DNA of 64,000 nt from NCBI RefSeq assembly GCF_024757985.1, contig NZ_CP103289.1, forward strand, positions 4,030,001 to 4,094,000, written 5' to 3'. How positions within the stretch are numbered: position 1 is the first letter of the stretch; each line of letters opens with the position of its first letter. This document shows, piece by piece, positions 26,130-50,372 of the stretch. The translations under genes and the position numbers were made by a program. The notes under the pieces were generated by a model. It made no database searches and was not told where the DNA came from. It saw only the letters and a program-made list of their open reading frames with translations. The DNA is from Cellulomonas sp. NS3 (lineage in GTDB: Bacteria > Actinomycetota > Actinomycetes > Actinomycetales > Cellulomonadaceae).

Positions 26130-26143
26130 GGAAAGCGCTCTCC
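26130..26143. promoter_or_regulatory. LacI-family operator (GGAAAGCGCTCTCC)
   Basis: This is a near-perfect palindrome centred on AGCGCT. It lies just downstream of the promoter reading leftward into the ABC importer operon, a classic repressor position. Closely related sites occur at 40642-40655 and 50359-50372. Confidence 0.75.
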
Positions 26144-26159
26144 GCTTCCTGGTAGTAGT

Positions 26160-26189
26160 TTGGTACCAGTCCGGAATGTGTGATGTCAA
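26160..26189 (-). promoter_or_regulatory. Promoter of the sugar ABC importer operon
   Basis: On the minus strand, a consensus -35 TTGACA (26189-26184) is followed after 17-18 bases by GTACCA/TACCAA as the -10 region. The operator at 26143-26130 lies immediately downstream. The -35 is clear; the -10 is weak. Confidence 0.55.
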
Positions 26190-26267
26190 CCACACAGCCG
26201 GGTGCCAGAGAGGTGCCGGAGCAGGGGGACAGCCTGCTGACCAGCGACGACGCGAGCGGAGCCGAGC

Positions 26268-27581
26268 GTGCCAGAGACCGCCCCCATGATCGACGGCGAC
26301 GGGCACCCGCACGGGTTCCCACCTGCGGGGACGCCCCGCCAGGAGGCCCCGGAGCCCGGCGGCGGGGCCGCTCGTGCCGCGTCGCGACCGGTGTCGGTGG
26401 CCCTGGTCGGGACCCACGGGCACGGCACATCACATCTTGGTCACGTTCGCTCGCTCGCCGACGCGGGGGCCGTCCGGCTCGCCGCCGTCGTCGACCCGCA
26501 CCCGCTCGCGACGGCTGCCGAGGTCGCCGAGGGCGCGACGCGCGGGCAGCGCCTCGCGTCCGTCGACGACGTGCCCGACGGCACCGTGTGGCACCCCGAC
26601 CTCGCCGCGCTGCTCGCCGCCGGGGCGCCCGACGTCGTGATCCTCTGCACCCCGATCGACACGCACGCACCGCTCGCGACCGCCGCGCTCGAGGCCGGCT
26701 GCGACGTGCTGCTCGAGAAGCCGCCGACCGCGTCGCTCGCCGAGCTCGAGGGGCTCGTCGCGACGCAGGAGCGCACCGGCCGGACCGTCCAGGTCGGCTT
26801 CCAGACGTACGGGTCGCACGCCGTCGCCCGCGTCCGCGAGGTGGTGGCGAGCGGCGAGATCGGGACCGTCACCGGGGTCGGCGGCGTCGGGACGTGGGTG
26901 CGGCCCGACACCTACTGGACGCGCGCACGGTGGGCCGGGCGGCGCACGGTCGACGGGCGCGCGGTGGTCGACGGCGTCGTCACCAACCCCCTCGCGCACG
27001 CGGTCGCGACCGCGCTGCTGCTCGCCGGCGCCTCGCGGGCGAGCGACGTCGCCTCGGTCGAGCTCGACCTGGCGCGCGCCAACCCGATCGAGGCCGACGA
27101 CACGTCGAGCGTCCGGGTCACCACGACGGACGGGCTGCGGGTCGCGCTCGGGCTGACGCTGTGCGCCGCCGTGCAGACGCCGCCGCACCTCGTGGTGCAC
27201 GGGACCGAGGGGCGCGTCGTGCTGCACTACACGCGCGACGTGCTCGAGGTCACCGGGCCGGGCGGCACGCGCACCGAGACGTGCGCGCGCGACGACCTGC
27301 TCGAGAACCTCCTGGCGCACCGCGCCGACCCCGCGGTGCCGCTGCACGCGCCGCTCGTCGCGACCGGGGCCTTCATGCGGGTGCTCGACGCGGTCCGCGC
27401 CGCCCCCGACCCCGTGGCGATCGACCCCGCGCACGTCGACGACGTGACCGACGACGCGGGCCGGCACCTCGTGGTCCGCGGCGTCGAGGACCTGTGCGCG
27501 CAGGTCGCCGAGACGCTGCAGACCTTCAGCGAGCTCGGGGCGCCGTGGACGCGTCCGTCGACGACCGGGGGTGCGGCATGA
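26268..27581 (+). CDS. Gfo/Idh/MocA-family oxidoreductase
   Basis: This 437-residue NAD(P)-dependent dehydrogenase has an N-terminal extension of about 40 residues, then a Rossmann motif VALVGTHGHGTSH (about 43-55). It also has the family's LLEKPPTASLAELEGLV (conserved EKP) and a C-terminal substrate domain. These enzymes oxidise or reduce sugars, sugar acids or inositols. The start is GTG at 26268 with GGAG upstream; the ATG at 26286 is an alternative. The stop overlaps the next ATG as ATGA, so the DUF6807-like gene is coupled. It is divergent from the ABC importer across a shared regulatory gap with a LacI operator. Confidence 0.88.
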   Translation: MPETAPMIDGDGHPHGFPPAGTPRQEAPEPGGGAARAASRPVSVALVGTHGHGTSHLGHVRSLADAGAVRLAAVVDPHPLATAAEVAEGATRGQRLASVDDVPDGTVWHPDLAALLAAGAPDVVILCTPIDTHAPLATAALEAGCDVLLEKPPTASLAELEGLVATQERTGRTVQVGFQTYGSHAVARVREVVASGEIGTVTGVGGVGTWVRPDTYWTRARWAGRRTVDGRAVVDGVVTNPLAHAVATALLLAGASRASDVASVELDLARANPIEADDTSSVRVTTTDGLRVALGLTLCAAVQTPPHLVVHGTEGRVVLHYTRDVLEVTGPGGTRTETCARDDLLENLLAHRADPAVPLHAPLVATGAFMRVLDAVRAAPDPVAIDPAHVDDVTDDAGRHLVVRGVEDLCAQVAETLQTFSELGAPWTRPSTTGGAA

Positions 27582-28903
27582 CGCACGGTGCGGTGCACGA
27601 GCCCGTCGACTCCCCCGCGCACGGCCCCGCCGGACCCGACGCGCCCGTCAAGGCCCCGCCGTGGGACCCCACGCCCTCCTGGGGCGAGCACCGCGTGCTC
27701 GCCCGGCTCGAGGTCGCGGACCGCGTCGTGGCGGAGTACGCCGACGGCACCGGCGCTCCGGCGTTCGACTCCCCGCGCCCGCACCTGCACCCCGTGCGGA
27801 CCCCGGGCGGCGTCGTCGTGACCGACGCGGCCCCGCGCGACCACACCTGGCACGTGGGCCTCGGCGTGGGCGTGCAGGACGTCGCGGGCAGCAACCTCTG
27901 GGGCGGGCGCACGTACGTGCGGGACGACGGCTACACGTGGCGCCACGACCACGGCGCGGTCCGCCACGACGCGTGGCCCCTCGAGGAGCCGAGCCTGCGC
28001 GTCGAGGCGCTCACGTGGCTCGATGCGCAGGGCGCGCCGGTGCTCACCGAGACGCGGACGCTACGCTGGGGTCCCGCCGGGGCGCTCGCCGCGGGCACCG
28101 GCTGGCAGCTCGAGCTCACGACGGTCCTCACGCTCGCGCCCGGGCGCACCGAGCCCGTGGCGCTCGGCAGCCCGGGGTCGAACGGCCGGGTCGGCGGCGG
28201 CTACGGCGGCTTCTTCTGGCGGCTGCCCGCGTGCCTGGACGTCGACGTGCGCACGCCCCTGGGCCGCGGCGAGGAGGCCGTGCACGGGTCACGGCCGTCG
28301 CAGGGCGCGGCGTGGGTCGCCTGGTCGGCGCGGTCCCGCCCGGCCGCGGAGCCGGAACCCCTGACGAGCGCGAGCGGCATCCCGCTCGGCGGCGTGTTCG
28401 GGCGTGACGGGTTCGGGCGCGTCGGCGCCGGCGGGGCGATCGAGGTCGCGGGCTTCGCGGACGGCACGGCGAGCGGCGTGGGTGACGGGCTCGTCAGCGT
28501 TCCCGGTCCCGCGGGTGAGGCGGCCCGGGCAGCAGCGACCGAGCACCCCGCGGACGGCGACTTCACGGTCGCCCTCGCGCCCGCGCGGGGTCAGGCGGCC
28601 GACGACCCCTGGTTCGTGCGGGTCGCCGACTACCCGGGCCTCGGCTCGGCCTGGGCGTGGGAGCACCCCGCGGTCGTCGAGCCCGGGCAGCCGTTCACCC
28701 GCGGGCTGCGGTGCCTCGTCGCCGACGGCCGCCTCACGGACGGCGAGGTCGCCGCCGCGCTCCTCGGGACCGCCGCGGCGGCGCAGGGCACGCGCGCCGG
28801 GGGCCCGTCCGTCGGCCCCCGCAGTGCCCGCAGTGCCCGCAGTGCCCGCAGTGCCCGACCCACCGCCGACGCCCCACCGACCCCCCAGGAGCAGCCCCGA
28901 TGA
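27578..28903 (+). CDS. DUF6807 (PmoA-like) family protein
   Basis: This 441-residue protein has a beta-rich core. Motifs typical of the family are HPVRTPGGVVVTDAAPRDHT, WHVGLGVGVQDVAGSNLWGG, and YGGFFWRLP. The family carries a misleading 'methane oxygenase PmoA' label. Members are soluble and occur in sugar-catabolism loci next to Gfo/Idh enzymes, as here; the reaction is unknown. Both ends overlap neighbours by ATGA, giving a tight three-gene operon with Gfo/Idh and altronate dehydratase. The C-terminus ends in a low-complexity SARSARSARSAR stretch coded by a 9-bp DNA repeat. Confidence 0.82.
   Translation: MTHGAVHEPVDSPAHGPAGPDAPVKAPPWDPTPSWGEHRVLARLEVADRVVAEYADGTGAPAFDSPRPHLHPVRTPGGVVVTDAAPRDHTWHVGLGVGVQDVAGSNLWGGRTYVRDDGYTWRHDHGAVRHDAWPLEEPSLRVEALTWLDAQGAPVLTETRTLRWGPAGALAAGTGWQLELTTVLTLAPGRTEPVALGSPGSNGRVGGGYGGFFWRLPACLDVDVRTPLGRGEEAVHGSRPSQGAAWVAWSARSRPAAEPEPLTSASGIPLGGVFGRDGFGRVGAGGAIEVAGFADGTASGVGDGLVSVPGPAGEAARAAATEHPADGDFTVALAPARGQAADDPWFVRVADYPGLGSAWAWEHPAVVEPGQPFTRGLRCLVADGRLTDGEVAAALLGTAAAAQGTRAGGPSVGPRSARSARSARSARPTADAPPTPQEQPR
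28818..28857. repeat. 9-bp tandem repeat inside the DUF6807-like gene
   Basis: CCCGCAGTG is repeated four times plus a partial copy, encoding Ser-Ala-Arg repeats in the C-terminal tail. Nine bases keep the frame, so length changes are tolerated. Confidence 0.9.
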
Positions 28904-30444
28904 GCACCACCCTTCCCGAGCTCACGGACTGCGCGCTGGTCCTGCGGCCCGGTGACGACGTCGCCGTGGCGACCCGCGACCTGCAGTCGGGCACGGAGAT
29001 CCGGCACGACGGCGCGCCGCTCGTGATCCGGCAGAGCGTGCCGCGCGGGCACAAGCTCGCCGTCCGCGACGTCCCCGCCGGTGGCCAGGTGCACAAGTAC
29101 GGGCAGTCGATCGGCCTCGCGACCCGCGACATCGCCGTCGGGGACCACGTGCACACGCACAACCTCGGCATGGACGACGTCGCGCGCGACTACGAGTTCG
29201 GCACCGCGCGCGTGCGTCCCGCGCCGTGGGCGGGGCCTGTCCGCACGTTCCAGGGCTACCACCGCGCCGACGGCCGGGTCGGGACGCGCAACTACGTCGC
29301 GATCCTCACGTCGGTGAACTGCTCGGCGTCGTCCGCGCGCATGATCGCCGACCAGTTCCGCGGCCCGGTGCTCGACGCATACCCGCACGTCGACGGGGTC
29401 GTCGCGCTCACGCACACGACGGGCTGCGGGCTCGTCGCGCAGAGCGAGGGCGCGCAGATCACGCTGCGCACGCTGCGCGGGTACGCCGACCACCCCAACG
29501 TGGCGGGTGTCCTCGTGCTCGGGCTCGGCTGCGAGATGCTGCCCGCGCAGTCGCTGCTCGACGGGCTCGACCTGCCCGCCGACAAGCCCGTGCGCACGCT
29601 CGTGATCCAGGAGACCGGCGGGATCCGCCGGACCGTCAAGGCGGGCGTCGAGGCGGTCCAGGACATGCTCCCCGAGATCGAGGCGCTGCGCCGCGCCCCG
29701 GCGCCGGTCTCCGAGCTCGTGCTCGGCATGAACTGCGGCGGCAGCGACGGGTACTCGGGCATCACCGCCAACCCGGCGCTCGGCTACGCGTCGGACCTGC
29801 TCGTCGCGCACGGCGCCACCACGATCCTCGCGGAGACCCCCGAGGTCTTCGGGGCCGAGCACCTGCTGACGCGCCGTGCGGTCAGCGAGGAGGTCGGCCG
29901 CACGCTCCTCCGGCGCATCGACTGGTGGCAGACGTACGCGGCGCAGGGCGGCGGCTCGCTCGACAACAACCCGTCCCCCGGCAACAAGGCCGGCGGGCTC
30001 ACGACGATCCTCGAGAAGTCGCTCGGGGCCGTCGCCAAGGGGGGCAGCGCCGAGCTGGCGGCCGTCTACGAGTACGCCGAGCCCGTGACCGCGAAGGGCT
30101 TCACGTTCATGGACACCCCGGGCTACGACCCGGTCTCCGTGACCGGGATCGTCGCGGGCGGCTCGACCGTCGTGGTGTTCACGACCGGGCGCGGGTCGGT
30201 GCTCGGGTGCAAGCCGACGCCGTCGATCAAGGTGTGCACCAACACCGAGACCTACGACCGGATGTCCGAGGACATGGACCTGAACGCGGGGCGGATCGTC
30301 GACGGCGAGGCGACGGTGCATCAGGTCGGCGAGGAGATCTTCGAGAAGATCATCGCCGTCGCGTCCGGCGAGCAGACCGTCTCCGAGGAGCTCGACCTCG
30401 GGCAGGACGAGTTCGTGCCGTGGCAGCTCGGGACGGTGACGTGA
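28900..30444 (+). CDS. uxaA: Altronate dehydratase family protein (UxaA/GarD type)
   Basis: The 514-residue product dehydrates altronate (or a related hexonate such as galactarate) to 2-keto-3-deoxygluconate. It has an N-terminal SAF domain (about 10-95; VPRGHKLAVRDVPAGG, GDHVHTHNL) and the UxaA catalytic body: GRVGTRNYVAILTSVNCSA, THTTGCG, LGMNCGGSDGYSG, NPSPGNKAGGLTTILEKSLG, and GCKPTPSIKVCTN. Length matches full SAF-UxaA fusions. It is third in the operon with Gfo/Idh and the DUF6807-like gene, the start overlapping the previous stop as ATGA. With uxaC and a mannitol dehydrogenase-type reductase 6-9 kb away, a hexuronate route can be assembled up to KDG. UxaA versus galactarate dehydratase cannot be settled by sequence alone. 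Confidence 0.9.
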   Translation: MSTTLPELTDCALVLRPGDDVAVATRDLQSGTEIRHDGAPLVIRQSVPRGHKLAVRDVPAGGQVHKYGQSIGLATRDIAVGDHVHTHNLGMDDVARDYEFGTARVRPAPWAGPVRTFQGYHRADGRVGTRNYVAILTSVNCSASSARMIADQFRGPVLDAYPHVDGVVALTHTTGCGLVAQSEGAQITLRTLRGYADHPNVAGVLVLGLGCEMLPAQSLLDGLDLPADKPVRTLVIQETGGIRRTVKAGVEAVQDMLPEIEALRRAPAPVSELVLGMNCGGSDGYSGITANPALGYASDLLVAHGATTILAETPEVFGAEHLLTRRAVSEEVGRTLLRRIDWWQTYAAQGGGSLDNNPSPGNKAGGLTTILEKSLGAVAKGGSAELAAVYEYAEPVTAKGFTFMDTPGYDPVSVTGIVAGGSTVVVFTTGRGSVLGCKPTPSIKVCTNTETYDRMSEDMDLNAGRIVDGEATVHQVGEEIFEKIIAVASGEQTVSEELDLGQDEFVPWQLGTVT

Positions 30445-35176: not shown

Positions 35177-35929
35177 TCAGCGGAAGTGCGCGCCGCCGTT
35201 CACGTCGAGCACCGCACCCGTGATGAAGCCCGCGGCGCCCGAGGCGAGGTAGACGACCGCCCCGGCGACGTCGTCGGGCACCCCGGCACGCTTGACGGCC
35301 GTCGACGCCACGGCGGCGCGCTGCGCCGGCTCCGGGGTGTGGGTGGCGTGGAACGGCGTCGCCGTGATGAAGCCCGGGGCGATCGCGTTGACCGTGATCT
35401 GGCGCGGACCCAGCTCGCGGGCGAGCCCGCGCGTGAACCCGTCCATCGCGGCCTTCGCGGTGGCGTACGCCACGGCGCCCGTGCCACCGCCGTCCTGCGC
35501 GGCGAGCGAGCTGATCATGACGACGCGGCCGCCGTCGGGCATGAACGGCAGCACCGCGCGCGTCGCGTAGAACGCGCTCGACACGTTGAGGTCGAGGACC
35601 TGGTGCCAGTGCTGGTCGTCCATCTGGTGCACGAGCTGCCGGTCGACGAGCCCGCCCGCGTTGTTCACGAGGATGTCGATGCCGCCGCCGAGCGCCTCCG
35701 CGGCCTTCGCGACGACGTGGTCGACGTCCCAGCTGTGCCGCGCGTCGAGCTGGAACGACTCGCTCGTGCGGCCGAGACCCTCGATCGTCGCGACGACCGG
35801 CGCCGGGTCGTGCGCGAGGTGCGTGACCGCGACGTCCGCGCCGGCCCGGGCGAGCGCGATCGCGATCGCCTTCCCGATGCCGGCCGCGCCGCCGGTGACC
35901 AGCGCGCGACGACCCTCGAGGTTGTCCAT
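35177..35929 (-). CDS. Short-chain dehydrogenase/reductase
   Basis: This 250-residue classical SDR has the cofactor motif TGGAAGIGKA (about 12-21), the structural NNAG, Ser of the triad in VVMISSLAAQ, and YATAK (Tyr/Lys about 155-159). The C-terminus VNGGAHFR is typical. It resembles sugar or 3-oxoacyl reductases; the location 0.3 kb from uxaC hints at a hexonate/keto-sugar role. AAGGAG five bases before the ATG at 35929 fixes the start against an upstream GTG at 35935. The 294 bases to uxaC contain no further gene. Confidence 0.9.
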   Translation of the reverse strand: MDNLEGRRALVTGGAAGIGKAIAIALARAGADVAVTHLAHDPAPVVATIEGLGRTSESFQLDARHSWDVDHVVAKAAEALGGGIDILVNNAGGLVDRQLVHQMDDQHWHQVLDLNVSSAFYATRAVLPFMPDGGRVVMISSLAAQDGGGTGAVAYATAKAAMDGFTRGLARELGPRQITVNAIAPGFITATPFHATHTPEPAQRAAVASTAVKRAGVPDDVAGAVVYLASGAAGFITGAVLDVNGGAHFR

Positions 35930-36223: not shown

Positions 36224-37684
36224 TCACCCGCCCGTCGACGCCGCCCCCGGCTTCGGGTAGGAGGCGAGCGGGAGGCGGTACGCGAGGTCGACGGCGGTCT
36301 CGACGGCCTCGTCGAGGTCGAGCCGGTGCTCGGCGACGAGGCGCGCGAGGTGGCCCGCGTCGATGCGGCGCGCGAGGTCGTGGCGCGCGGGGATCGAGAA
36401 GAAGGCGCGCGTGTCGTCGACGAACCCGGTCGTGTTGTAGAAGCCGGCGCTGTCCGTGACGGCCTCGCGGAACCGGCGCATCCCGTCGGGGGTGTCGAGG
36501 AACCACCACGGCGCCCCGAGCCGCATCGCCGGGTACACGCCGGCGAGCGGCGCGAGCTCGCGCGAGTACGTGTCCTCGTCGACCGTGAACACGATGAGCC
36601 GCAGGCCCGGGTGGTGCCCGAACGCGGTGAGCAGCGGGCGCAGCGCGTGCGTGAACTCGGTCGGCACCGGGATGTCGTAGCCGACGTCCGGCCCGCGTGC
36701 CGCGAGGACGGCGGGGTCGTGGTCGCGCAGGACGCCGGGGTGGAGCTGCATGACCAGGCCGTCCTCGGACGACATCCGCGCCATCTCGAACAGCATGTGC
36801 CCGCTGAACGCCTCGGCCTCGGGGGCCTCGACCTCGCCCCGCACCGCGGCCGCGAAGATCCGCTCGGCGTCCGCGAGGGGCAGCGGCGACGTGTCCCCGC
36901 GCAGGTGCCCGTGGTCCGTGGCGCGCGCGCCGGCCGCGACGAACGCCGCACGGCGCTGCTCGAGCGCGCGCAGGTAGCCGGCGTAGGTCGAGGCGTCGAC
37001 GCCCGAGCGCTCGGAGAGGAGGTCGAGGTCGGCGCGCCACGTCGGGCGGTCGAGGTGCAGCAGGGCGTCGGGTCGGAACGTCGGGACGATCCGCTCGCCC
37101 CAGCCGCGCTCGGCGAGCGCCGCGTGGTCAGCGAGGGACGCTGTCGCCGGGTCGGTCGTCGCGAGGACCTCGATGCGGAACTCGTCGACGAGCGCGAGCG
37201 GGCGCATCCGCGGCTCGGCGAGGCGCTCGCTGATCGCGTCGTACAGGCGGTCGGCCGACTCCGCGGACGGGCGCTCGGTCAGCCCGAGGACTCCGGCGAG
37301 CACGTGCTCGAGCCAGAACCGGGTCGGGGTCCCGCGGTACAGGTGCCAGTGCGAGGCGAACGTGCGCCAGATCGCGCGCGGGTCGGCCTCGACCGGGCGG
37401 CCGTCGTGACGCGGGACGCCGAGCGCGTCGTGCGGGACGCCCTGTGAGACGAGCATCCGCACGAGGTAGTGGTCGGGGACGACGAACAGCTCGGCGGGGT
37501 TGCCGAACGGCTCGTCGGCGTTGAGCAGGGCGGCGTCGACGTGCCCGTGCATGGACACGATCGGAAGGTCGACGGTCGACGCGAGGATCTCGCGGGCGAG
37601 CGCGCGGGTCGTGGGGTCCGCGGGCAGGGCGCGGTCGGGGTGCAGGGCCCAGGTCGTGGTCTGGGCGCGGTTCTCGGCGGTCAC
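36224..37684 (-). CDS. uxaC: Glucuronate/galacturonate isomerase UxaC
   Basis: UxaC interconverts D-glucuronate/D-fructuronate and D-galacturonate/D-tagaturonate, the first step of the isomerase route. The 486-residue product has the amidohydrolase-fold metal motif HGHVD (about 46-50), the segment HWHLYRGTPTRFWLEHVL, RGDTSPLPL, and C-terminal DDTRAFFSIPARHDLARR. Length fits the family (about 470-490). The start is GTG at 37684 with AGGGAG five to six bases upstream. The gene is divergent from a LacI regulator, with a LacI-type palindrome in the shared gap. Confidence 0.94.
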   Translation of the reverse strand: MTAENRAQTTTWALHPDRALPADPTTRALAREILASTVDLPIVSMHGHVDAALLNADEPFGNPAELFVVPDHYLVRMLVSQGVPHDALGVPRHDGRPVEADPRAIWRTFASHWHLYRGTPTRFWLEHVLAGVLGLTERPSAESADRLYDAISERLAEPRMRPLALVDEFRIEVLATTDPATASLADHAALAERGWGERIVPTFRPDALLHLDRPTWRADLDLLSERSGVDASTYAGYLRALEQRRAAFVAAGARATDHGHLRGDTSPLPLADAERIFAAAVRGEVEAPEAEAFSGHMLFEMARMSSEDGLVMQLHPGVLRDHDPAVLAARGPDVGYDIPVPTEFTHALRPLLTAFGHHPGLRLIVFTVDEDTYSRELAPLAGVYPAMRLGAPWWFLDTPDGMRRFREAVTDSAGFYNTTGFVDDTRAFFSIPARHDLARRIDAGHLARLVAEHRLDLDEAVETAVDLAYRLPLASYPKPGAASTGG

Positions 37685-37742
37685 GTCGTCTCCCTGTGCC
37701 GGTCGTGCGGGCGGTCCCCGGTGACTCGCGCTGCATCGACGT

Positions 37743-37754
37743 GCAATCGTTTGC
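37743..37754. promoter_or_regulatory. LacI-type operator (GCAATCGTTTGC) in the uxaC-lacI gap
   Basis: The palindrome GCAA-TCGT-TTGC matches its complement at 10 of 12 positions and has the central CG of LacI-family sites. A GCAATCG half-site recurs at 37934-37940, next to the lacI start. It differs clearly from the GGAAAGCGCTTTCC-type sites, so a different repressor is implied, most simply the adjacent LacI protein. Confidence 0.65.
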
Positions 37755-37945
37755 GACGACCCTAGCGTCGGGTCGGGGACGCGACAACGGGCGAGCCCGT
37801 CGGGATCCGAGCGCTCACCATCAGGCTGCCGTAACACCTCGGACCGGTGCGCCAGCGCTGCGGCGCCGCCCGCGACACCCTGCCGGCGGGCCGTCGCCGA
37901 GACGGTCGTTGCACGCCACGACGCGCCCGTGGTGCAATCGCATCC

Positions 37946-39022
37946 ATGACCCCACCGGTGACGCTGCGCGACGTCGCGCGGGCCGCGGGCGTCTCCCCCG
38001 CGACGGCGTCCCGCGCGCTCGCGGCCACGGGCTCGACCTCGACCGACCGCCGCGCGCAGGTGCACCGCGCCGCACGCGAGCTCGGCTACCGCCCCAACCG
38101 CGCGGCCCGCGAGCTCATCACCGGGCGCACCGGCAACCTGTGCCTCGTCGTCCCCGACCTCGAGAACCCGTTCTTCGCGGCGGTCGCCAAGGCCGTGCAG
38201 TCGCGGGCGCGCACCGCGGGCTACGCGGTCTTCGTAGCGGACTCCGAGGAGGACCCGCACCTCGAGTCCGAGCTCGTGACGCAGCTCGGCGCGCAGGCCG
38301 ACGGTGTGATCCTGTGCGCGCCACGCATGAGCGAGACCGCCCTGACCCGGCTCAGCGCGGGGCGATCCGTGGTGCTCGTGAACCGCGAGGCGCCCGGCGT
38401 CGCGTCGGTCGTGGTGGACAACGTCGACGGCGTGCGTCAGGCCGCCGCGCACGTGCACGCCCTGGGCCACCGCCGGGTGGCGTGGGCGGGCGGACCGGCC
38501 GACTCGTGGTCGGACCGCGAGCGCCACGCGGGCCTGCTCCGTGCGGCCGAGCGGCTCCCCGGTCTCGAGGTTGTCGACCTCGGCCACTTCGCGCCCGTGT
38601 TCGCGGGCGGCGTCGCCGCGGCGGACCTCGTGGCCGCGTCGCGCGCGACCGCGGTGCTCGCGCACAACGACCTCATGGCGCTCGGGATCCTCGACCGGCT
38701 GCGCTCGCGCGGCACGGCCGTGCCCGGCGGCGTCTCCCTCGTCGGCTACGACGACGTGCCGGCCGCGACGCTCGTCTCGCCCGCGCTCACGACCGTCGCC
38801 GTGCCGTTCGGCCGCCTCGGCCGGGCCGCGGTCGACACCCTGCTCGGCCTCGGCACCGGCCTCGGCACCGTCACCGGCACGGGCCGCACCGCGGGCGCGC
38901 CCCGAGGAGCGGCACCCGACCCGGGTCCCGACGCCGCCGACCCCACCGCGCCCGGGCACCGGCTCGCCGTCGAGCTCGTCGTCCGCGGCTCGACCGACAC
39001 CGCCCCTGGAGGCGCATCGTGA
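37946..39022 (+). CDS. LacI-family regulator, probable uronate repressor
   Basis: This 358-residue protein has a LacI helix-turn-helix TLRDVARAAGVSPATASRAL (about 5-24) and a sugar-sensing domain (LCLVVPDLENPFFAAVAKAV; AVLAHNDLMALGILDRLRSR; GVSLVGYDDVPAATLVSPAL). It carries an unusual Gly/Pro/Asp-rich insert near 305-335 (GTGLGTVTGTGRTAGAPRG) before the last strand. It is divergent from uxaC and overlaps the downstream reductase gene by four bases (GTGA), so regulator and reductase are coupled. It likely represses both directions through the palindrome at 37743. Confidence 0.92.
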   Translation: MTPPVTLRDVARAAGVSPATASRALAATGSTSTDRRAQVHRAARELGYRPNRAARELITGRTGNLCLVVPDLENPFFAAVAKAVQSRARTAGYAVFVADSEEDPHLESELVTQLGAQADGVILCAPRMSETALTRLSAGRSVVLVNREAPGVASVVVDNVDGVRQAAAHVHALGHRRVAWAGGPADSWSDRERHAGLLRAAERLPGLEVVDLGHFAPVFAGGVAAADLVAASRATAVLAHNDLMALGILDRLRSRGTAVPGGVSLVGYDDVPAATLVSPALTTVAVPFGRLGRAAVDTLLGLGTGLGTVTGTGRTAGAPRGAAPDPGPDAADPTAPGHRLAVELVVRGSTDTAPGGAS

Positions 39023-40578
39023 CCACGACCCCCACCGACGCGCGTCCCACCGACCCGGCCCCCGACGCCGCGCAGCTCTCGCTCGCGACGCTCGACGCCG
39101 CCGCGGCCCACGCCGGCGCGTCGACCTGGACCCCGCCCGCGGTCGACCCGGGCGCGCTCGAGGTCGGGATCGTGCACCTCGGGCTCGGCGCATTCCACCG
39201 CGCGCACCAGGCCGTGCACACCGAGGACGCCGCTGCCGTGACCGGTGAGACGCGCTGGGGCATCCTCGGCGTCACCCAGCGCAGCGCGCGCGTCGCCGAG
39301 CAGCTGGCGCCGCAGGACGGGCTGTACGGCGTGCTCACGAAGGGCCGCACCGCGACGTCGCTGCGCGTGATCGGCTCGCTGCGCGGCGTCGCGTTCCCCG
39401 GCACGCAGACACCCGAGGTGCTCGACCGCCTCGCCGCACCGACGACGCACGTCGTGTCGCTCACGGTCACCGAGAAGGGCTACCGCCGCGCGCCGGGCGG
39501 CGGCCCGGACCTGGACGACGCCGGCACGCAGGCGGACCTCACGGCGCTCGCGGCCGAGCTCGGCGCCCCGGGCGCGGGCGCGACCGACCTGCGCCCCGCC
39601 GCGACGTCCATGGGCCTGCTCGTGCGCGGGCTCGCCCGGCGGCACGCGACGTCGGGCGCGCCCGTCACGGTGGTGTGCTGCGACAACATGGTCGACAACG
39701 GCGCCCAGGTCCGCCGCATCGTGACCGGGTTGCTCGACGCGGTCCCCGGTGCGGAGGCGCTGCGCGCCTGGGTCGAGGAGTCGGTGCGCTTCCCCGGCAC
39801 GATGGTCGACCGCATCGTCCCCGCGACGACGGAGGAGCACCGGGCGCAGGCGCACGCGGTCCTCGGGCTGCGGGACGAGGGCCTCGTCGTCGGCGAGCCG
39901 TTCACGCAGTGGGTGATCGAGGACGACTTCGCCGGCCCGCGCCCGGCGTGGGAGCGTGCGGGCGCAACGCTCACCGGCGACGTCGCGCCGTACGAGCGCG
40001 CGAAGCTCCGGGTGCTCAACGCGACGCACTCGACGCTCGCGTACCTCGGCGCGCTGCACGGCTACCGGACCATCGCCGAGGCCGTCCAGGACCCCGCGCT
40101 CGAGCAGGTCGCGCGCGCGCTGATCGACGAGGACGTGCTCCCGACGCTCACCCCGCCCGACGGCCTCGACCTGCACGCCTACCGCGACTCGGTGCTGGAG
40201 CGGTTCGCGAACCCGAACACCGGGCACACGACGATCCAGGTCGCGATGGACGGCTCACAGAAGCTGCCGTTCCGGCTGCTCGCGACGGCCGCCGACCGGC
40301 TCGCCGCCGGGGCGGTCCCGCACGCGGTGGCCCGGGCGGTCGCGGCGTGGGTCGTGTTCGTGCGGCGCGGCGCGTCCGCGACCGGTGACGTGCTGCCCCT
40401 CGACGACCCGCTGGCCGACGTGCTGCGCGCCGCTGCCGCCGGCCCCGAGGACGGGCTCGCGGACCGGATGCTCGACCTCCGCGCGGTCTTCCCGGCCGAG
40501 GTCGGGGACTCCCCCGAGATGCGCGCGGCCGTACGAGCCGCCGTGCTCGAGCTGCTCGCGGACGTGCGCGAGGCCTGA
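39019..40578 (+). CDS. Mannitol dehydrogenase-family hexuronate reductase (UxuB/UxaB type)
   Basis: This 519-residue NAD-dependent long-chain polyol dehydrogenase carries the cofactor region VGIVHLGLGAFHRAHQAVHT (about 52-71), VCCDNMVDNG, and the catalytic block ERAKLRVLNATHSTLAYLG (Lys, Asn and His about 331-342). Members include mannitol 2-dehydrogenase, fructuronate reductase (UxuB) and arabinitol dehydrogenase. Adjacent uxaC makes fructuronate or tagaturonate reduction most likely. The start is GTG at 39019 with GGAGG upstream, overlapping the lacI stop. Together with UxaA this gives uronate to KDG; the KDG kinase and aldolase are not in the window. Confidence 0.88.
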   Translation: MTTTPTDARPTDPAPDAAQLSLATLDAAAAHAGASTWTPPAVDPGALEVGIVHLGLGAFHRAHQAVHTEDAAAVTGETRWGILGVTQRSARVAEQLAPQDGLYGVLTKGRTATSLRVIGSLRGVAFPGTQTPEVLDRLAAPTTHVVSLTVTEKGYRRAPGGGPDLDDAGTQADLTALAAELGAPGAGATDLRPAATSMGLLVRGLARRHATSGAPVTVVCCDNMVDNGAQVRRIVTGLLDAVPGAEALRAWVEESVRFPGTMVDRIVPATTEEHRAQAHAVLGLRDEGLVVGEPFTQWVIEDDFAGPRPAWERAGATLTGDVAPYERAKLRVLNATHSTLAYLGALHGYRTIAEAVQDPALEQVARALIDEDVLPTLTPPDGLDLHAYRDSVLERFANPNTGHTTIQVAMDGSQKLPFRLLATAADRLAAGAVPHAVARAVAAWVVFVRRGASATGDVLPLDDPLADVLRAAAAGPEDGLADRMLDLRAVFPAEVGDSPEMRAAVRAAVLELLADVREA

Positions 40579-40611: not shown

Positions 40612-40641
40612 TTGACGTCGGCGTTCCGCGCGCCCTATCGT
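40612..40641 (+). promoter_or_regulatory. Promoter of the Gfo/Idh-isomerase operon
   Basis: -35 TTGACG (40612-40617) and -10 TATCGT (40636-40641) are separated by 18 bases, immediately before a LacI-type operator. Confidence 0.65.
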
Positions 40642-40655
40642 GGAAAGCGCATTCC
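40642..40655. promoter_or_regulatory. LacI-family operator (GGAAAGCGCATTCC)
   Basis: The palindrome GGAAaGCGCaTTCC matches its complement at 12 of 14 positions and abuts the -10 box, so a bound repressor would block initiation. It is the second member of the three-site set. Confidence 0.78.
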
Positions 40656-40680: not shown

Positions 40681-41844
40681 ATGACGTCCCGCACGCTCCG
40701 CATCGCGATGAACGGCATCACCGGTCGCATGGGCTATCGGCAGCACCTGGTCCGCTCGATCCTGGCGATCCGCGACGCAGGCGGCGTCGTGCTCGAGGAC
40801 GGGTCGGTCGTGCAGGTCGAGCCCGTGCTCGTCGGGCGCAACGAGGGCAAGGTCCGCGAGCTCGCCGCACGCCACGGCGTCGCCGGGTGGAGCACCGACG
40901 TCGACTCCCTGCTCGCCGACCCGACGATCGACATCTACTTCGACGCCCAGGTGACCTCGCGCCGGTACGCGGCGCTGACGGCGGCGATGAAGCAGGGCAA
41001 GCACATCTTCACGGAGAAGCCGACCGCCGAGACGCTCACGGAGGCCGTGGAGCTCGCGCGCGTCGCCCAGGACGCGGGCGTCACCGCGGGCGTCGTGCAC
41101 GACAAGCTCTACCTGCCCGGCCTCGTCAAGCTGCGCCGGCTCGTCGACGAGGGCTTCTTCGGGCGGATCCTGTCGCTGCGCGGCGAGTTCGGCTACTGGG
41201 TGTTCGAGGGCGAGCACCAGCCCGCGCAGCGCCCGAGCTGGAACTACCGCAAGGAGGACGGCGGTGGCATGACCACCGACATGTTCTGCCACTGGAACTA
41301 CGTCCTGGAGGGCCTGCTCGGCTCGGTGAAGGCCGTCACCGCGAAGACCGTGACGCACATCCCGACCCGCTGGGACGAGAAGGGCCGCCCCTACACGGCC
41401 ACCGCCGACGACGCCGCCTACGGCATCTTCGAGGTCGAGGGCCCCGAGGGCGAGGAGATCGTCGCGCAGATCAACTCGTCCTGGGCCGTGCGCGTGTACC
41501 GCGACGAGCTCGTCGAGTTCCAGGTCGACGGCACCGAGGGCTCGGCGGTCGCCGGCCTCAACCGCTGCGTCGCCCAGCAGCGCGCGCACACCCCCAAGCC
41601 GGTCTGGAACCCGGACCTGCCGGTCACCGAGTCGTACCGCGACCAGTGGCTCGAGGTCCCCGCCAACGCCGACCTGGACAACGGTTTCAAGCTGCAGTGG
41701 GAGGAGTTCCTGCGCGACGTCGTCGCCGGGCGCGAGCACCGCTTCGGGCTGCTCTCGGCCGCGCGCGGCGTGCAGCTCGCCGAGCTCGGGCTGCAGTCCT
41801 CGGCCGAGGGGCGCCGCCTCGAGATCCCCGAGATCACGCTGTGA
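40681..41844 (+). CDS. Gfo/Idh/MocA-family oxidoreductase
   Basis: This 387-residue NAD(P)-dependent sugar dehydrogenase has the dinucleotide fold IAMNGITGRMGYRQHL (about 8-23), the conserved IFTEKPTAETLTEAVELA, and the catalytic-domain block DGGGMTTDMFCHWNYVLEG with the His expected in this family. GGAGAG before the ATG at 40681 supports the start. It is first of a two-gene operon; the isomerase start overlaps its stop (GTGA). Gfo/Idh with a TIM-barrel isomerase is the classic pair for inositol or 3-keto-sugar pathways. Confidence 0.92.
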   Translation: MTSRTLRIAMNGITGRMGYRQHLVRSILAIRDAGGVVLEDGSVVQVEPVLVGRNEGKVRELAARHGVAGWSTDVDSLLADPTIDIYFDAQVTSRRYAALTAAMKQGKHIFTEKPTAETLTEAVELARVAQDAGVTAGVVHDKLYLPGLVKLRRLVDEGFFGRILSLRGEFGYWVFEGEHQPAQRPSWNYRKEDGGGMTTDMFCHWNYVLEGLLGSVKAVTAKTVTHIPTRWDEKGRPYTATADDAAYGIFEVEGPEGEEIVAQINSSWAVRVYRDELVEFQVDGTEGSAVAGLNRCVAQQRAHTPKPVWNPDLPVTESYRDQWLEVPANADLDNGFKLQWEEFLRDVVAGREHRFGLLSAARGVQLAELGLQSSAEGRRLEIPEITL

Positions 41845-42806
41845 CCACCGGGTCCCCCGACCTGTCCCGGCTCTCGCTCAACACCGCGACGACCAAGGCG
41901 TGGGACCTGCGCGAGGCCGTCGACGGCGCCGCGCGCGCGGGGCTGCCGGCCGTGGGCCTGTGGCGCGACCGCGTGCAGGAGGTCGGGGCGCCGCTGGCCG
42001 CGAAGATCGTCGCCGACGCCGGCCTGCGCGTGTCGTCGCTGTGCCGCGGGGGCTTCCTGACCGCGTCCGACGACGCCGGCATCGCCGCGGCGCTCGAGGA
42101 CAACCGGGCCGCCGTCGTCGAGGCGGCGACGCTCGGGACGCGCGAGCTCGTGTTCGTCGTCGGCGGGCTGCCGGCGGCGTCGGCCCCCGGCGGACCGGCG
42201 CTCCCGTACCGGGGGACGACGGGCGCGACCCCCGCGGCAGCGCCCGGCACGTCGTCGGGCGCGCCCGCACGGACGCCCGACGGCAGCGACCCCGCGCGCG
42301 ACCTCGTCGCCACCCGCGCCCGCGTGGCCGACCGCATCGCCGACCTCGTGCCTTTCGCGGCCGAGCACGACGTGCGGATCGTCCTCGAGCCGCTGCACCC
42401 GATCTTCGCGGCGGACCGCGCGGTGATCTCGACGCTGGGCCAGGCGCTCGACCTCGCGGCGCCGTTCCCGGCCGAGACGGTCGGCGTCGTGGTGGACACC
42501 TACCACGTGTGGTGGGACCCGGACCTCGAGCGGCAGATCGCCCGCGCCGGCGCCGAGGGCCGGCTCGCGGGCTACCAGGTGTGCGACTGGGTCCTCCCGC
42601 TCGCCGCCGACGCGCTGCTCTCGCGCGGCCACGTCGGCGACGGGTACGTCGACTTCGCGACGATCACGCGCTGGGTCGCCGCCGCCGGGTACACCGGGGA
42701 CGTCGAGGTCGAGATCTTCCGGCAGGAGATCTGGGACGCGCCGGGCGACGAGACCGTGGCGACCCTCGCCGACCGCTACGCGCGGCACGTGCTGCCGCAC
42801 CTCTGA
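41841..42806 (+). CDS. Sugar phosphate isomerase/epimerase (xylose isomerase-like TIM barrel)
   Basis: This 321-residue protein has the AP endonuclease 2/IolE fold: RLSLNTATTKAW at the start, SSLCRGGFL, then VRIVLEPLHPIFAAD and VGVVVDTYHVWWDP (likely metal-ligand Glu, Asp, His), and VEVEIFRQEIWD near the end. An Ala/Gly/Pro/Thr-rich insert of about 40 residues (near 115-155) interrupts the fold between strands. It probably isomerises or epimerises the keto-sugar made by the coupled Gfo/Idh enzyme. A hairpin terminator overlaps its stop. Confidence 0.88.
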   Translation: MTTGSPDLSRLSLNTATTKAWDLREAVDGAARAGLPAVGLWRDRVQEVGAPLAAKIVADAGLRVSSLCRGGFLTASDDAGIAAALEDNRAAVVEAATLGTRELVFVVGGLPAASAPGGPALPYRGTTGATPAAAPGTSSGAPARTPDGSDPARDLVATRARVADRIADLVPFAAEHDVRIVLEPLHPIFAADRAVISTLGQALDLAAPFPAETVGVVVDTYHVWWDPDLERQIARAGAEGRLAGYQVCDWVLPLAADALLSRGHVGDGYVDFATITRWVAAAGYTGDVEVEIFRQEIWDAPGDETVATLADRYARHVLPHL

Positions 42807-46413: not shown

Positions 46414-46560
46414 GAACGTCCTCCGGAGTGCGACGAGGGTCCCCGGACCGCCCCGTCGGGCTGCACGGCGGGCCGAGGACGTGGTCCCCCCAGGGTCGGC
46501 CGGATGCGCGGCGGGCGCCGTCCGGGGCGCACGTCCTGCACGATCGGGCACGATGACGCC

Positions 46561-46932: not shown

Positions 46933-46984
46933 CCTCGCCCACTCCGCCGCTCAGGTCCACGCCTCGCGTGCCGATCCGAAGCGC

Positions 46985-47260: not shown

Positions 47261-47270
47261 CCGTCGCCGG

Positions 47271-47350
47271 GTCAGACCGTCAGACCGTCAGACCGTCAGA
47301 CCGTCAGACCGTCAGACCGTCAGACCGTCAGACCGTCAGACCGTCAGACG
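47271..47350. repeat. Octanucleotide tandem repeat (GTCAGACC), ten copies
   Basis: Nine perfect copies (47271-47342) and a tenth ending in G run directly into the stop codon of the minus-strand flavoprotein gene (47344-47346 within copy ten). On the minus strand the unit GGTCTGAC contains TGA and, being 8 bases, places stops in every frame. Confidence 0.97.
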
Positions 47351-49452
47351 ACGTTCCGGTGCTCCCGGTACTCGCGCCACACGTTCTCGAAGAAGTCGTC
47401 GTCCTCCGGGATGGGCCGCACGGGTCGCCACGCGAACGTGACCTTGCCCGAGCCGTCGACCCGCACGCCGTCGTCGGGCCCGACCGCGCCCGAGCCGGCC
47501 GCAGCCGGTGACGCGTCCGGCACCGCCGGCGACCACGCGACCTCCTGCACCTCCCCGTCGAGCGCCCCGCCGTCGAGCGTGAACCGGAAGATCTCGGGGA
47601 GGTCGAGCTCGCGCGCGGCGTCCTCGCCGAACCCGACCTGCGGCAGCGAGCCCTCGGGGTCGGTGTAGAGCACGGACCCGCGGGACCGGCCGCCGTGCTC
47701 GACGTAGTCGGCCATCGCGGCGAGGTAGACGGACGCGGTCGTGAGGATGTCGCGGACGAGGAAGGTGCGGTTGACGGCGCGGCGCGACCCGGCGTCGGCG
47801 GCGACGGTGGCCTCGTAGTCGGCGAGCCACGCGCGGACCTGGTCGAGCGCCTCGTGGATCGACTCGCGCGAGCGGACCGGGCCGGCCTTGGCGCTCATGA
47901 GCTCGCCGACCGCCGTGAGCAGGTCGCCGGTGTTGTCGGGGATGCCGGCGGCGGCGCGGTCGGTGGACCGCTCGACGAGCCCGTGGGCCGCCCCCAGCAC
48001 CGGTCCGGCGACGGCCGCGAACTCGTCCTCGGGCAGGGGGGCGTCGGTCCGCTGCACCGCGATCCACTGCGCCGCCCGCGTCGCCCCCACCTGGCCGCTG
48101 TTGAGGGCCGCTCCCCCGGGCCGGTACACGCCGTGCGCCCCGCCGGCCTCGCCGACGGGGAAGAACCCGCGGACGTTCGACTGCCACCACGCGTCGACCA
48201 CGAGGCCGCCGTTGTTGTGCTGCGCGCACACGTCGACCTCGAGCAGCTCCGTCTCGAGGTCCACGTACGGGTTCTTCTGCAGGTAGAAGTCGTAGGCGGG
48301 CCGGTTCATGCGCTGCAGCCGCTCGACGGGGGTGCCGAACAGGACGCCGGCACGCTCGAGGTAGTCGTGCGCCTCGGGCGACAGGGCCGACGCGTCGAGC
48401 TCGTCGCGCACCGGGTTGCGGCGGAAGTCGAGGAACACGCGCCGCCCGCGCAGCACGGTCTCCTGGTAGACGAGCAGGTCGATGAGCGAGGACCCGTCGC
48501 GGGCCTTCCGCACGTCGAACGGCCACTGGTAGCCCTTGAGGAAGATGAGCGAGAGCTGGCGGCCGTAGTCGGGGATCGACTCGGAGAGGAACTCGCGCTC
48601 GTCGTTCCCGTCCTGGTCGGTCGAGACGAACCGCGGCAGGACCTGCATGTACGTGCCCGAGACGTTCCAGCGCGGGTGCGTCGACGCGAGCCCGAACTGC
48701 CACTCCGTGACGTTCTTGCCGTGCACCCCCGCGCGGTACGCGGCGCCGGAGGCCCCCCACTGGCCGTGCGGGAACACGCGCGTCGCGTAGATGCCGGCCG
48801 GGCCGCCCGTGGCGTAGACGAGGTTGGTGCAGCGGAACAGCAGGAACGGGCTCTGCTCGCCGTCGTGCGGGACGTCGGTGCGCAGCACGAGCAGCCCGGC
48901 GACCTCGCCGTCGCGCACCACGAGGTCGACGACGCGGCACTCGTCGTAGATGCGGGTGCCGTTGCGCGCGACCTTCTTCTCGAGCTGCTCGACCATGCTG
49001 CGCGACGTGTACGGCCCGACCGACGTGGCCCGGCGGCGCGGGTCGTGATCGGTCTTGTAGCCGATGAACTCCCCGAACCGGTTCTGCGGGAACGGCACCC
49101 CGAGCTCGCACAGCCGCAGGAACGCCCGGGCGGAGAGCGCGGCCTCGGCGAGGGCGTTGTCGCCGTCCATCGCGCCGCCCGAGAACAGCGTCTGGGCCAT
49201 CTCCCGGACGGAGTCGGGGTCGCCGCCCGAGAGCGTCATCTTGTAGTACGTCTGCTTGTCCGAGCCGGCGTTGCGGGACGCCCCGGCACCGATCTTGTCG
49301 GCCACCATGACGACGTCGGGCTGCCCGAACTCCCAGAGCCGGTCCGCGGCGCAGAAGCCCGCGGACCCCGTGCCGACGACGACGGTGTTGGCGGTCACGA
49401 CCGGCACCGCGCGCCCGTCGATCGTGAGCTCGTGCGGCTCGTGGCTGGTCAT
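47344..49452 (-). CDS. FAD-binding fumarate reductase/succinate dehydrogenase-like flavoprotein
   Basis: This 702-residue protein has an N-terminal FAD fold [17 protein letters not shown] (about 24-40), a segment [24 protein letters not shown], and the family's active-site/FAD end motifs QHNNGGL and [20 protein letters not shown]. It belongs with FrdA/SdhA/NadB-type flavoproteins but lacks partner iron-sulfur or cytochrome subunits nearby. It is the second gene after an SDR (33-base gap, GGAGGA before ATG), under a LacI-type operator shared with sugar genes. An oxidase or dehydrogenase step on a sugar-derived acid is plausible; the substrate is unknown. Confidence 0.88.
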
Positions 49453-49485
49453 CGCGGGGTCCTCCGGCTGGGGGTGGGTGGGGCG

Positions 49486-50280
49486 TCAGAGCGTGGGGAT
49501 GTGCAGGCCGCCGTCGACGTGGAACACCTCGCCGGTCGAGTACGGGGTCTGCCCCGACACGAGCAGCGAGACGGCGCCGGCGACGTCGGCGGGCCGGCCC
49601 CAGCGGTTGACCGGCGCGAGCCCCTCGGCGATCAGCGCGTCGTACTTGCCGGCGACGCCCGCGGTCATGTCGGTCGCGACGACGCCGGGCCGCACCTCGT
49701 GGACGACGATGCCCTCGGGCGCGAGCCGCACGGCGAAGAGCTGGGTCGCCATCGCGACGCCCGCCTTGGACACGCAGTACTCGCCGCGCGCGGTGGAGAC
49801 CGTCGTCGCGGAGATCGACGAGACGTTGACCACCGTCGCGACCGGGCCCTCGGGCGGCTCGGGCAGGTGGTCGAGGTCGCCGCGCAGCCCGATGACCCGG
49901 TTCGCGAACGCCTGCGTGAGGAAGTAGGGCCCGCGCAGGTTGATCCCGAGCACCCGGTCGAAGCTCTCGGCGCTCGCCTCGAGGAGGTCCGCGCGGACGC
50001 TCGGCGCGACGCCCGCGTTGTTGACCAGCACGTCGAGCCGCCCCCACGCGTCGACGGCGTCGTCGAGGTAGCGCGCGTGGTCCTCGAGGTCGGCCACCGA
50101 GCCGCGCACGTACCGCACCCGCGCGTCGTCTCCCGCGAGCGCACGCAGCTCCGCGAGCACCTCGGCCGGTTCCTCGCGCGTCGCGAGGATCGAGACGGCG
50201 AACCCGTCCTCGACGAGTCGGCGGCTGATACCGAGGCCGATGCCCCGGTTGCCGCCGGTGACGAGTGCGACTGCCGGCAT
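49486..50280 (-). CDS. Short-chain dehydrogenase/reductase (3-oxoacyl/sugar reductase type)
   Basis: This 264-residue classical SDR has the cofactor motif [11 protein letters not shown] (about 7-17), NNAGVAP, Ser in [10 protein letters not shown], and YCVSK (Tyr/Lys pair about 160-164). It ends [11 protein letters not shown]. The ATG at 50280 is preferred: AAGAGG lies nine bases upstream, whereas the ATG at 50289 directly abuts it. It is first of the SDR-flavoprotein operon, with a LacI-type operator 79 bases upstream. It probably works on the same metabolite as the downstream flavoprotein. Confidence 0.9.
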
Positions 50281-50358
50281 CGTTGCCATCCTCTTCGCGG
50301 TCGGGCGCACCGCGGCCGTGCGGTGTCGCGCCGATCCTGGCATGCGTCACGGCGCGAT

Positions 50359-50372
50359 GGCAAGCGCTTTCC
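50359..50372. promoter_or_regulatory. LacI-family operator (GGCAAGCGCTTTCC)
   Basis: The palindrome is centred on AGCGCT, with one outer mismatch. On the minus strand its end overlaps TTGCCA, the probable -35 of the SDR-flavoprotein operon. It is the third member of the set with 26130 and 40642. Confidence 0.78.

What the first reader, a model, noticed from the sequence alone, without database searches (positions are those of the whole stretch)
26130..50372. Three unlinked promoters share one LacI-type operator: a local sugar regulon
GGAAAGCGCTCTCC (26130), GGAAAGCGCATTCC (40642) and GGCAAGCGCTTTCC (50359) are near-identical 14-bp palindromes. Each sits on a recognisable promoter: downstream of TTGACA/-10 for the ABC importer, abutting TATCGT for the Gfo/Idh-isomerase operon, and overlapping TTGCCA for the SDR-flavoprotein operon. 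LacI repressors bind such sites (known family behaviour). The inferred regulon couples import, two dehydrogenases, an isomerase and an SdhA/FrdA-like flavoprotein, a combination I cannot match to a described pathway. The LacI at 20887 or a remote regulator could be the repressor.
Basis: partly seen in the sequence, partly recalled or inferred. Interest (0 to 1): 0.78.

Follow-up and report, generated by a model that had tools for sequence, protein, structure and literature searches.

The report
LacI operators of a pectin regulon
Three matching DNA switches in this Cellulomonas-like bacterium look like real repressor-binding sites, kept letter for letter in relatives, that most likely tie genes for taking up and using the sugar acid of pectin to one sugar-sensing repressor; the design is a familiar one, but it includes four conserved enzymes whose job is not known.

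Summary
The palindromes are real. GGAAAGCGCTTTCC (up to 1 mismatch) occurs at exactly these three window places and in none of 100 shuffles; genome-wide at 7 places, reversed control 0. The same three variants recur in three same-genus genomes. Named loci keep the SDR site exactly in 36 of 46 and the Gfo/Idh site in 28 of 36, amid flanks of about 47%.

Linked UxaC-, UxaB- and UxaA-like enzymes and an importer point to hexuronate use. Of 13 further sites (up to 2 mismatches), six front two PL1 and one PL3 pectate lyase and a pectinesterase, favouring galacturonate.

Best repressor candidate: LacI 20887. LacI 37946 gave no match in three genomes that keep the operators, and seems to have another operator. 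One result resists a single repressor: relative G001 lacks the whole block and both LacIs, yet keeps 7 of 7 aligned distal sites intact. A second LacI probably reads the same sequence.

Closest known: the Cphy2742 pectin regulon (PMC5171806). New member of a known kind; the SDR-flavoprotein-Gfo/Idh-isomerase set is unassigned.

The parts
26130..26143 (.). operator 1, between the ABC importer operon (-) and the Gfo/Idh, DUF6807, UxaA-like operon (+)
   Evidence: 14/14 in G002, G003, G006
26184..26189 (-). TTGACA, likely -35 box of the importer promoter
   Evidence: conserved in four genomes
22724..26020 (-). ABC sugar importer: two permeases (25073-26020, 24142-25080) and binding protein (22724-24067)
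   Evidence: binding protein by Pfam; permeases named from their sequence and position, not scanned
26268..27581 (+). Gfo/Idh/MocA oxidoreductase (start may be 26391)
27545..28903 (+). DUF6807 protein
28900..30444 (+). UxaA/GarD-like altronate or galactarate dehydratase
   Evidence: SAF and GD_AH domains; TIGR03248 410 bits, cutoff 731
40642..40655 (.). operator 2, directly downstream of the -10 box
   Evidence: exact in 28 of 36 loci
40612..40641 (+). promoter TTGACG-18-TATCGT
   Evidence: similar boxes in relatives
40681..41844 (+). Gfo/Idh/MocA oxidoreductase; best solved match 3oqb
41841..42806 (+). xylose-isomerase-like TIM barrel (AP_endonuc_2)
50359..50372 (.). operator 3; its TTGCC overlaps the -35-like box on the - strand
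   Evidence: exact in 36 of 46 loci
50334..50363 (-). promoter-like TTGCCA-18-CAGGAT of the SDR operon
   Evidence: conserved columns; not found by the consensus scan
49486..50280 (-). short-chain dehydrogenase (PRK12745 type)
47344..49452 (-). flavoprotein of succinate dehydrogenase/fumarate reductase fold, substrate unknown
20887..21921 (+). LacI-family regulator, best candidate repressor
37946..39022 (+). second LacI-family regulator, probably for uxaC/uxaB
37742..37755 (.). TGCAATCGTTTGCG, putative operator of LacI 37946
37933..37946 (.). TGCAATCGCATCCA, second putative operator of LacI 37946
36224..37684 (-). UxaC, uronate isomerase
   Evidence: NF002794 glucuronate isomerase, 498 bits, cutoff 387
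39019..40578 (+). UxaB/UxuB-like reductase
   Evidence: fructuronate reductase 313 bits, cutoff 603; tagaturonate reductase 148, cutoff 359

Best explanation
The three palindromes are operators of one LacI-family repressor, most likely the product of 20887-21921, in a hexuronate regulon, most likely for D-galacturonate from pectin, of a Cellulomonas-like actinobacterium. Shown here: exact conservation of the sites at orthologous promoters, and their place over or just downstream of promoter-like boxes. Inferred: without inducer the repressor sits over the -35-like box of the SDR operon, at the likely transcription start of the Gfo/Idh operon and downstream of the importer promoter, and blocks RNA polymerase; a uronate or a breakdown product releases it, switching on import, the UxaA-like enzyme and the SDR, flavoprotein, Gfo/Idh and isomerase set. 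UxaC and UxaB answer to LacI 37946 through another operator. The same operator sequence fronts pectate lyases and a pectinesterase elsewhere, where a second, unidentified LacI probably shares it.
For: Statistics (0 sites scoring 14 or more in 93 kb not chosen for a site). Same three variants in G002, G003, G006, eight of nine tied to the orthologous gene. Named loci: SDR site exact in 36 of 46, Gfo/Idh site exact in 28 of 36, flanks about 47%. In Bifidobacterium L085 the SDR, flavoprotein, Gfo/Idh and isomerase genes follow one another on one strand. LacI 20887 orthologues next to the Gfo/Idh operator in L050, L055, L059, L079, L082, L084, L126; 15 of 30 loci fetched around orthologues hold a site scoring 14 or more. 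In 150 family genomes LacI 20887 matches (E 1e-60) in 72 of 80 with a canonical operator and 13 of 70 without, Fisher P about 1e-19. Residues 1-20 of LacI 20887 are 97% conserved, residues 61-335 74% (n=30). Six of 13 distal places front pectin enzymes.
Against: G001 has no LacI 20887 or 37946 (26 of its 27 LacI-family hits compared) yet keeps 7 of 7 aligned distal sites at 14/14 with flanks 953 of 1154: LacI 20887 is not the only reader, unless G001 lost it very recently. No operator upstream of LacI 20887 in its own genome. No GG..CC operator between uxaC and LacI 37946. The UxaB-like protein scores better as fructuronate than tagaturonate reductase and UxaC's model is named glucuronate isomerase, so glucuronate is not excluded. 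Seven of 13 distal places are not at pectin enzymes. The importer site is conserved in the genus only as far as seen; L058 and L065 have other palindromes there. Four of six Bifidobacterium Gfo/Idh regions and all six SDR regions lack the site. Co-occurrence was not corrected for ancestry, and one search scored about 14 candidates per genome. No binding or expression data.
Confidence: 0.66

Rival explanations
1. A remote LacI is the master reader of all these sites, a cre-like system, and LacI 20887 controls something else or only fine-tunes.
For: G001 keeps the distal sites without 20887. Two other LacIs, at 2218778 and 2366768, are in G000, G001 and G003 but not G004 or G005. Some targets are central metabolism.
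Against: Operators sit beside 20887 orthologues in several genera and co-occur with them. Neither candidate has a site scoring 11 or more in its fetched 20-kb G000 neighbourhood.
Confidence: 0.17
2. Two LacIs with overlapping specificity and wholly separate regulons: 20887 for the window operons, another for the depolymerases (overlaps with the best explanation, which leaves the split open).
For: Loss of the whole block in G001 with distal sites intact.
Against: The transketolase site is in G000, G001, G002, G003, G006 and not in G004, G005; the Gfo/GH51 site likewise by letters, with the gene checked in four of the five. That is nearly the distribution of 20887. A very recent deletion would also explain G001.
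Confidence: 0.3
3. LacI 37946, between uxaC and uxaB, is the repressor of the three sites.
For: Lies between operators 1 and 2 among the uronate genes.
Against: No match at E 1e-60 in G002, G003, G006, which keep the operators (about 13 candidates scored per genome; in G003 all 21 LacI hits were compared). TGCAAnCGnTTGCA-like sites in 15 of 17 of its promoters.
Confidence: 0.04
4. The palindromes are chance.
For: The loose two-mismatch pattern is not significant in the window.
Confidence: 0.01

Closest known systems
Cphy2742 LacI/GalR pectin regulon, Clostridium phytofermentans (PMC5171806, abstract and passages seen)
   Same: LacI-type palindrome resembling cre (TGAAAGCGCTTTCA); sites at or downstream of transcription starts; pectin lyases, galacturonate genes and some carbon-metabolism genes under one motif
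   Different: Actinobacterium; GG..CC edges; no site upstream of the candidate regulator in its own genome; uxaC/uxaB apparently under another LacI; adds the SDR, flavoprotein, Gfo/Idh, isomerase set; orthology of the regulators not tested
LacI-family hexuronate regulators ExuR, KdgR, UxaR, UxuR (PMC4052901, passages seen)
   Same: LacI family; CG-centred even palindrome; uronate genes as targets
   Different: The passages seen name no actinobacterial pectin or galacturonate member; its supplementary tables were not seen
Hexuronate isomerase pathway UxaC, UxaB, UxaA (PMC6353982, passages seen)
   Same: All three enzyme types lie in the window with an importer
   Different: Apparently split between two LacI operators; unassigned extra enzymes; two of three enzymes below their family cutoffs

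Membership tests
LacI-family operator | even palindrome with central CG | tested here: met
   feature stated in PMC4052901 (passages)
[quoted passage not shown]
   39 (Gfo/Idh), 79 (SDR), 110 (importer permease)
LacI-family operator | conserved at orthologous promoters | tested here: met
LacI-family operator | bound by a LacI protein | not testable with these tools
   no binding data
Pectin LacI regulon (Cphy2742 type) | operator upstream of pectin depolymerases | tested here: met
Pectin LacI regulon (Cphy2742 type) | all galacturonate assimilation genes under the operator | tested here: not met
   no site between uxaC and LacI 37946-uxaB; the UxaA-like gene is in the operon behind operator 1
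Pectin LacI regulon (Cphy2742 type) | autoregulation of the LacI gene | tested here: inconclusive
   none in own genome; sites upstream of some orthologues, e.g. L157, L158, L166, L172
Pectin LacI regulon (Cphy2742 type) | induction by galacturonate | not testable with these tools
   no expression data
Hexuronate isomerase pathway | UxaC | tested here: met
   NF002794, 498 bits against cutoff 387
Hexuronate isomerase pathway | UxaB and UxaA | tested here: inconclusive
   expected Pfam domains, below NCBIfam cutoffs
Hexuronate isomerase pathway | KdgK and KDPG aldolase | not tested
   not searched

The most novel reading that the evidence does not exclude
The SDR, SdhA-fold flavoprotein, Gfo/Idh and TIM-barrel isomerase form one undescribed enzyme module of pectin or uronate catabolism. 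It is one gene run in Bifidobacterium, two co-controlled operons in Micrococcales, and in a gut Clostridia relative an SDR-flavoprotein pair beside an old-yellow-enzyme-like reductase with UxuA and UxuB-like genes further on. It acts on a carboxylated sugar that the known isomerase pathway does not handle.
Probability: 0.35. Interest if true: 0.62.

Novelty: new member of a known kind. Interest (0 to 1): 0.42.

Why it matters
It ties a conserved but nameless enzyme set, found also in Bifidobacterium and gut Clostridia, to pectin or uronate use through shared control, so its substrate becomes a testable question. It predicts a repressor with exact operators for Cellulomonas-like bacteria. The near relative that lacks the repressor but keeps the distal sites is a natural experiment on how LacI paralogues share one operator.

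Tried and rejected
Loose pattern with 2 mismatches: no signal above chance in the window. Autoregulation as a guide: no strong match in the promoters of the 31 LacI-family hits; two carry GGAGAGCGCTCTCC-type sites scoring 12.7-13.1 (an earlier version, missed many of the LacIs). Site at 4581281 before a rhamnogalacturonan lyase: left out of the 16 because it exceeds 2 mismatches and has a LacI nearby. In-gene site 2782071: probably chance. Transketolase as a probe: 30 of the 148 genomes with a match examined; site in G000, G001, G002, G003, G006, and in G101 and G114; a first version read minus-strand loci the wrong way and was redone. LacI profile: 26 of 27 hits of G001, 21 of 21 of G003, 26 of 26 of G004, 20 of 20 of G005, only 5 of 23 of G002 and 8 of 29 of G006; two candidates for a second reader, neither convincing. 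Rfam, gathering threshold, over the window: nothing. Flavoprotein model: succinate dehydrogenase/fumarate reductase fold (pLDDT 79.9, pTM 0.87; best Foldseek E 7.5e-23 at 16% identity), no closer functional hint. Literature: 7 answered searches; none of the papers listed is an actinobacterial galacturonate LacI regulon by its title; the lists are capped and subscription papers are mostly not held. Loci L014, L015, L325, L326, L331 were fetched and not analysed beyond gene calls or background motif counts; one search was an empty script.
Full report
OBSERVATION. The three 14-mers are at the stated places, each one mismatch from GGAAAGCGCTTTCC. At up to 1 mismatch the window holds these three, and 0 of 100 shuffles holds any. 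A looser two-mismatch degenerate pattern gives 7 against 3.6 expected, so the case rests on the tight pattern. The window is 4030001-4094000 of a 4.78-Mb single-contig genome. At up to 1 mismatch the genome has 7 places, reversed control 0; at up to 2, 16 against 5. Three of 7 in 64 kb is itself a cluster (P about 8e-5).

CONSERVATION. G002, G003 and G006, same genus, carry all three variants. G004 and G005 have none at up to 1 mismatch. Of 80 named loci, 46 gave a usable SDR upstream region and 36 a Gfo/Idh one. SDR: GGAAAGCGCTTGCC in 36, a variant in two, none scoring 14 or more in eight (six Bifidobacterium, L058, L077). Gfo/Idh: GGAAAGCGCATTCC in 28, a variant in four (two Bifidobacterium), none in four, all Bifidobacterium. 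Some named loci are the same contigs as G002 and G006 by length, and some species are close, so the counts are not independent. In anchored alignments of 37 and 29 loci plus the window, chosen because they hold the site, flanks agree with the column majority 47% on average. The importer site is 14/14 in three same-genus genomes; L058 and L065 have different palindromes there.

PROMOTERS. At the Gfo/Idh operon TTGACG-18-TATCGT ends at the base before the operator, and similar boxes recur in relatives (by eye), so the operator covers the likely transcription start. At the SDR operon the operator's TTGCC stands as the -35-like box with a CACGAT/CAGGAT-like box 17-18 bases on; the consensus scan missed it. 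I infer that this double duty explains why that site departs from symmetry at the same base in nearly all loci. At the importer, GTGTGGTTGACATCACA and GACTGGTACCAAACTACTAC are conserved upstream of the operator in four genomes. These positions fit repression by blocking polymerase (inference).

GENES. Operator 1 lies between an ABC importer and a Gfo/Idh, DUF6807, UxaA/GarD-like operon; operator 2 before Gfo/Idh and a TIM-barrel isomerase; operator 3 before an SDR and a 702-residue flavoprotein. UxaC (above its NCBIfam cutoff, as glucuronate isomerase) and a UxaB/UxuB-like reductase lie between operators 1 and 2. The reductase scores 313 bits as fructuronate and 148 as tagaturonate reductase, the dehydratase 410 as galactarate dehydratase, all below cutoffs; so galacturonate is favoured by the pectin genes below rather than by these enzymes alone, and glucuronate is not excluded. 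In Cellulomonas sp. PhB150 (L065) importer, SDR, flavoprotein, isomerase, Gfo/Idh, UxaB, UxaC, UxaA-like and orthologues of both LacIs lie within 22 kb. In Bifidobacterium L085 SDR, flavoprotein, Gfo/Idh and isomerase follow one another. In B. biavatii (L090) a GH28-family gene is a neighbour. In Faecalispora jeddahensis (L097) the SDR and flavoprotein follow a LacI, an epimerase-like TIM barrel, an old-yellow-enzyme-like reductase and a zinc dehydrogenase, with UxuA and a mannitol-dehydrogenase-family gene further on. The reaction of the quartet is unknown. The flavoprotein has the succinate dehydrogenase/fumarate reductase fold. Its invariant H440 and R444 (42 sequences) align with an HG..R stretch of that family, which hints at a carboxylated substrate (inference; the role of that stretch is recalled).

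GENOME-WIDE TARGETS. The 16 places at up to 2 mismatches: three in the window; then PL1 pectate lyase (73093, 73115), PL3 pectate lyase (1439010, 1439096), a second PL1 (4334053), pectinesterase (1178264); Gfo/Idh divergent from an arabinofuranosidase (902661); transketolase (2707918); glycosyltransferase (657673); 2-oxoglutarate dehydrogenase (1604622); transhydrogenase operon (3528992, touching the end of the next gene); GH6 cellulase (4222999); one inside a gene (2782071). So 6 of the 13 outside the window front four pectin-enzyme genes and 7 do not. PL and GH numbers are recalled from the Pfam names. How many pectin genes lack a site was not determined.

WHICH LACI. The genome has 31 LacI-family hits, two of them short and weak. 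LacI 20887: orthologues stand beside the Gfo/Idh operator in seven named loci; 15 of 30 fetched orthologue loci hold a site scoring 14 or more, against none in 93 kb of stretches not chosen for a site; in 150 family genomes it matches in 72 of 80 with a canonical operator and 13 of 70 without (four genomes with only GGAATGCGCTTGCC counted as without; ancestry not corrected; about 14 candidates scored per genome, so absences are soft). LacI 37946: no match at E 1e-60 in G002, G003, G006, which keep the operators. Its own promoters carry TGCAAnCGnTTGCA-like sites (up to 3 mismatches) in 15 of 17 loci, reversed control 2 of 17, and at 37742 and 37933 in the window. Against that distinction, the same loose search hits 42 of 46 SDR regions and 5 of 36 Gfo/Idh regions, so it rests on the T..A against GG..CC edges.

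THE COMPLICATION. G001, with LacIs mostly 93-100% identical, has neither LacI (26 of 27 hits compared) and lacks the block: its contig passes from window position about 10,930 to 50,672 with about 650 bases between, where a sensor/GGDEF gene runs into a Gfo/Idh remnant in one frame. recQ within about 9 kb of the SDR in L049, L051 and L052 suggests a deletion in G001. Yet 7 of 7 distal sites aligned between G000 and G001 are 14/14, against 953 of 1154 bases in six flank comparisons (the seventh overlaps another). Three more sites are listed with identical letters but were not aligned. At that divergence about 17 changes in 98 bases would be expected without constraint (my arithmetic). Either the deletion is very recent or another LacI reads these sites. 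Two LacIs (2218778, 2366768) are in G000, G001 and G003 but not G004 or G005; neither has a matching site in its G000 neighbourhood.

COMPARISON. Cphy2742 of Clostridium phytofermentans is proposed to repress pectin lyases, galacturonate genes and some carbon-metabolism genes through a cre-like palindrome at or downstream of transcription starts (PMC5171806; abstract and passages). This is the same kind of regulon. PMC4052901 lists LacI groups for glucuronate and galacturonate, ExuR, KdgR, UxaR, UxuR (passages). The Uxa pathway was checked in PMC6353982 (passages). PMC3870299 (passages) mentions an actinomycete LacI, RhaR, for rhamnose, a possible owner of the rhamnogalacturonan lyase site. 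None of the papers listed by 7 answered searches is an actinobacterial galacturonate LacI regulon by its title.

VERDICT. The reading is partly right: a LacI regulon, most likely for galacturonate from pectin, LacI 20887 the likely repressor, not merely local, with a second LacI probably sharing the sites. It is a new member of a known kind; the unassigned enzyme quartet is the part worth following.

Noticed in passing
window about 10930-50672; L329: A block of about 39 kb holding all three operons, both LacIs and the Uxa genes is missing from relative G001, where a sensor/GGDEF gene runs into a Gfo/Idh remnant in one frame.
   Followed up: partly
window 50407-50541; L330:4654-4788: A 135-bp stretch between operator 3 and recQ is 95% identical to a stretch 83-87 kb from recQ in G001; no Rfam match in the window.
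   Followed up: partly
window 37742-37755 and 37933-37946: LacI 37946 appears to have its own T..A-flanked operator pair at uxaC/LacI, found in relatives too.
   Followed up: yes
window 35177-35929: Another SDR behind uxaC on the same strand; best model scores below their cutoffs (FabG-like 213 of 222, KduD-like 170 of 339).
   Followed up: no
window 8714-12127: Protein joining a LacI-type sugar-sensor domain, with no LacI DNA-binding domain found, to PAS, GGDEF and EAL domains; looks like a sugar-sensing cyclic-di-GMP enzyme.
   Followed up: no
L030 and L031 (G000 near 894101 and 116655): Two LacIs with an SRATVSR helix carry GGAGAGCGCTCTCC-type sites in their own promoters, a close cousin of the operator studied here.
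   Followed up: no
L013:8282 (G000 4581281): GGTAAGCGCTCGCC (other strand) upstream of a rhamnogalacturonan lyase with a LacI nearby; probably a separate regulon.
   Followed up: no
L058:18439 and 18485; L065:3039 and 3085: Paired GGAAACCGGTTCCC and GGGAACCGGTTTCC palindromes 46 bp apart before the orthologous importer, with a LacI alongside: the importer has a different operator type in these species.
   Followed up: no
L097:4687-11923: Faecalispora version of the SDR-flavoprotein locus adds a LacI, an epimerase-like barrel, an old-yellow-enzyme-like reductase and a zinc dehydrogenase.
   Followed up: partly
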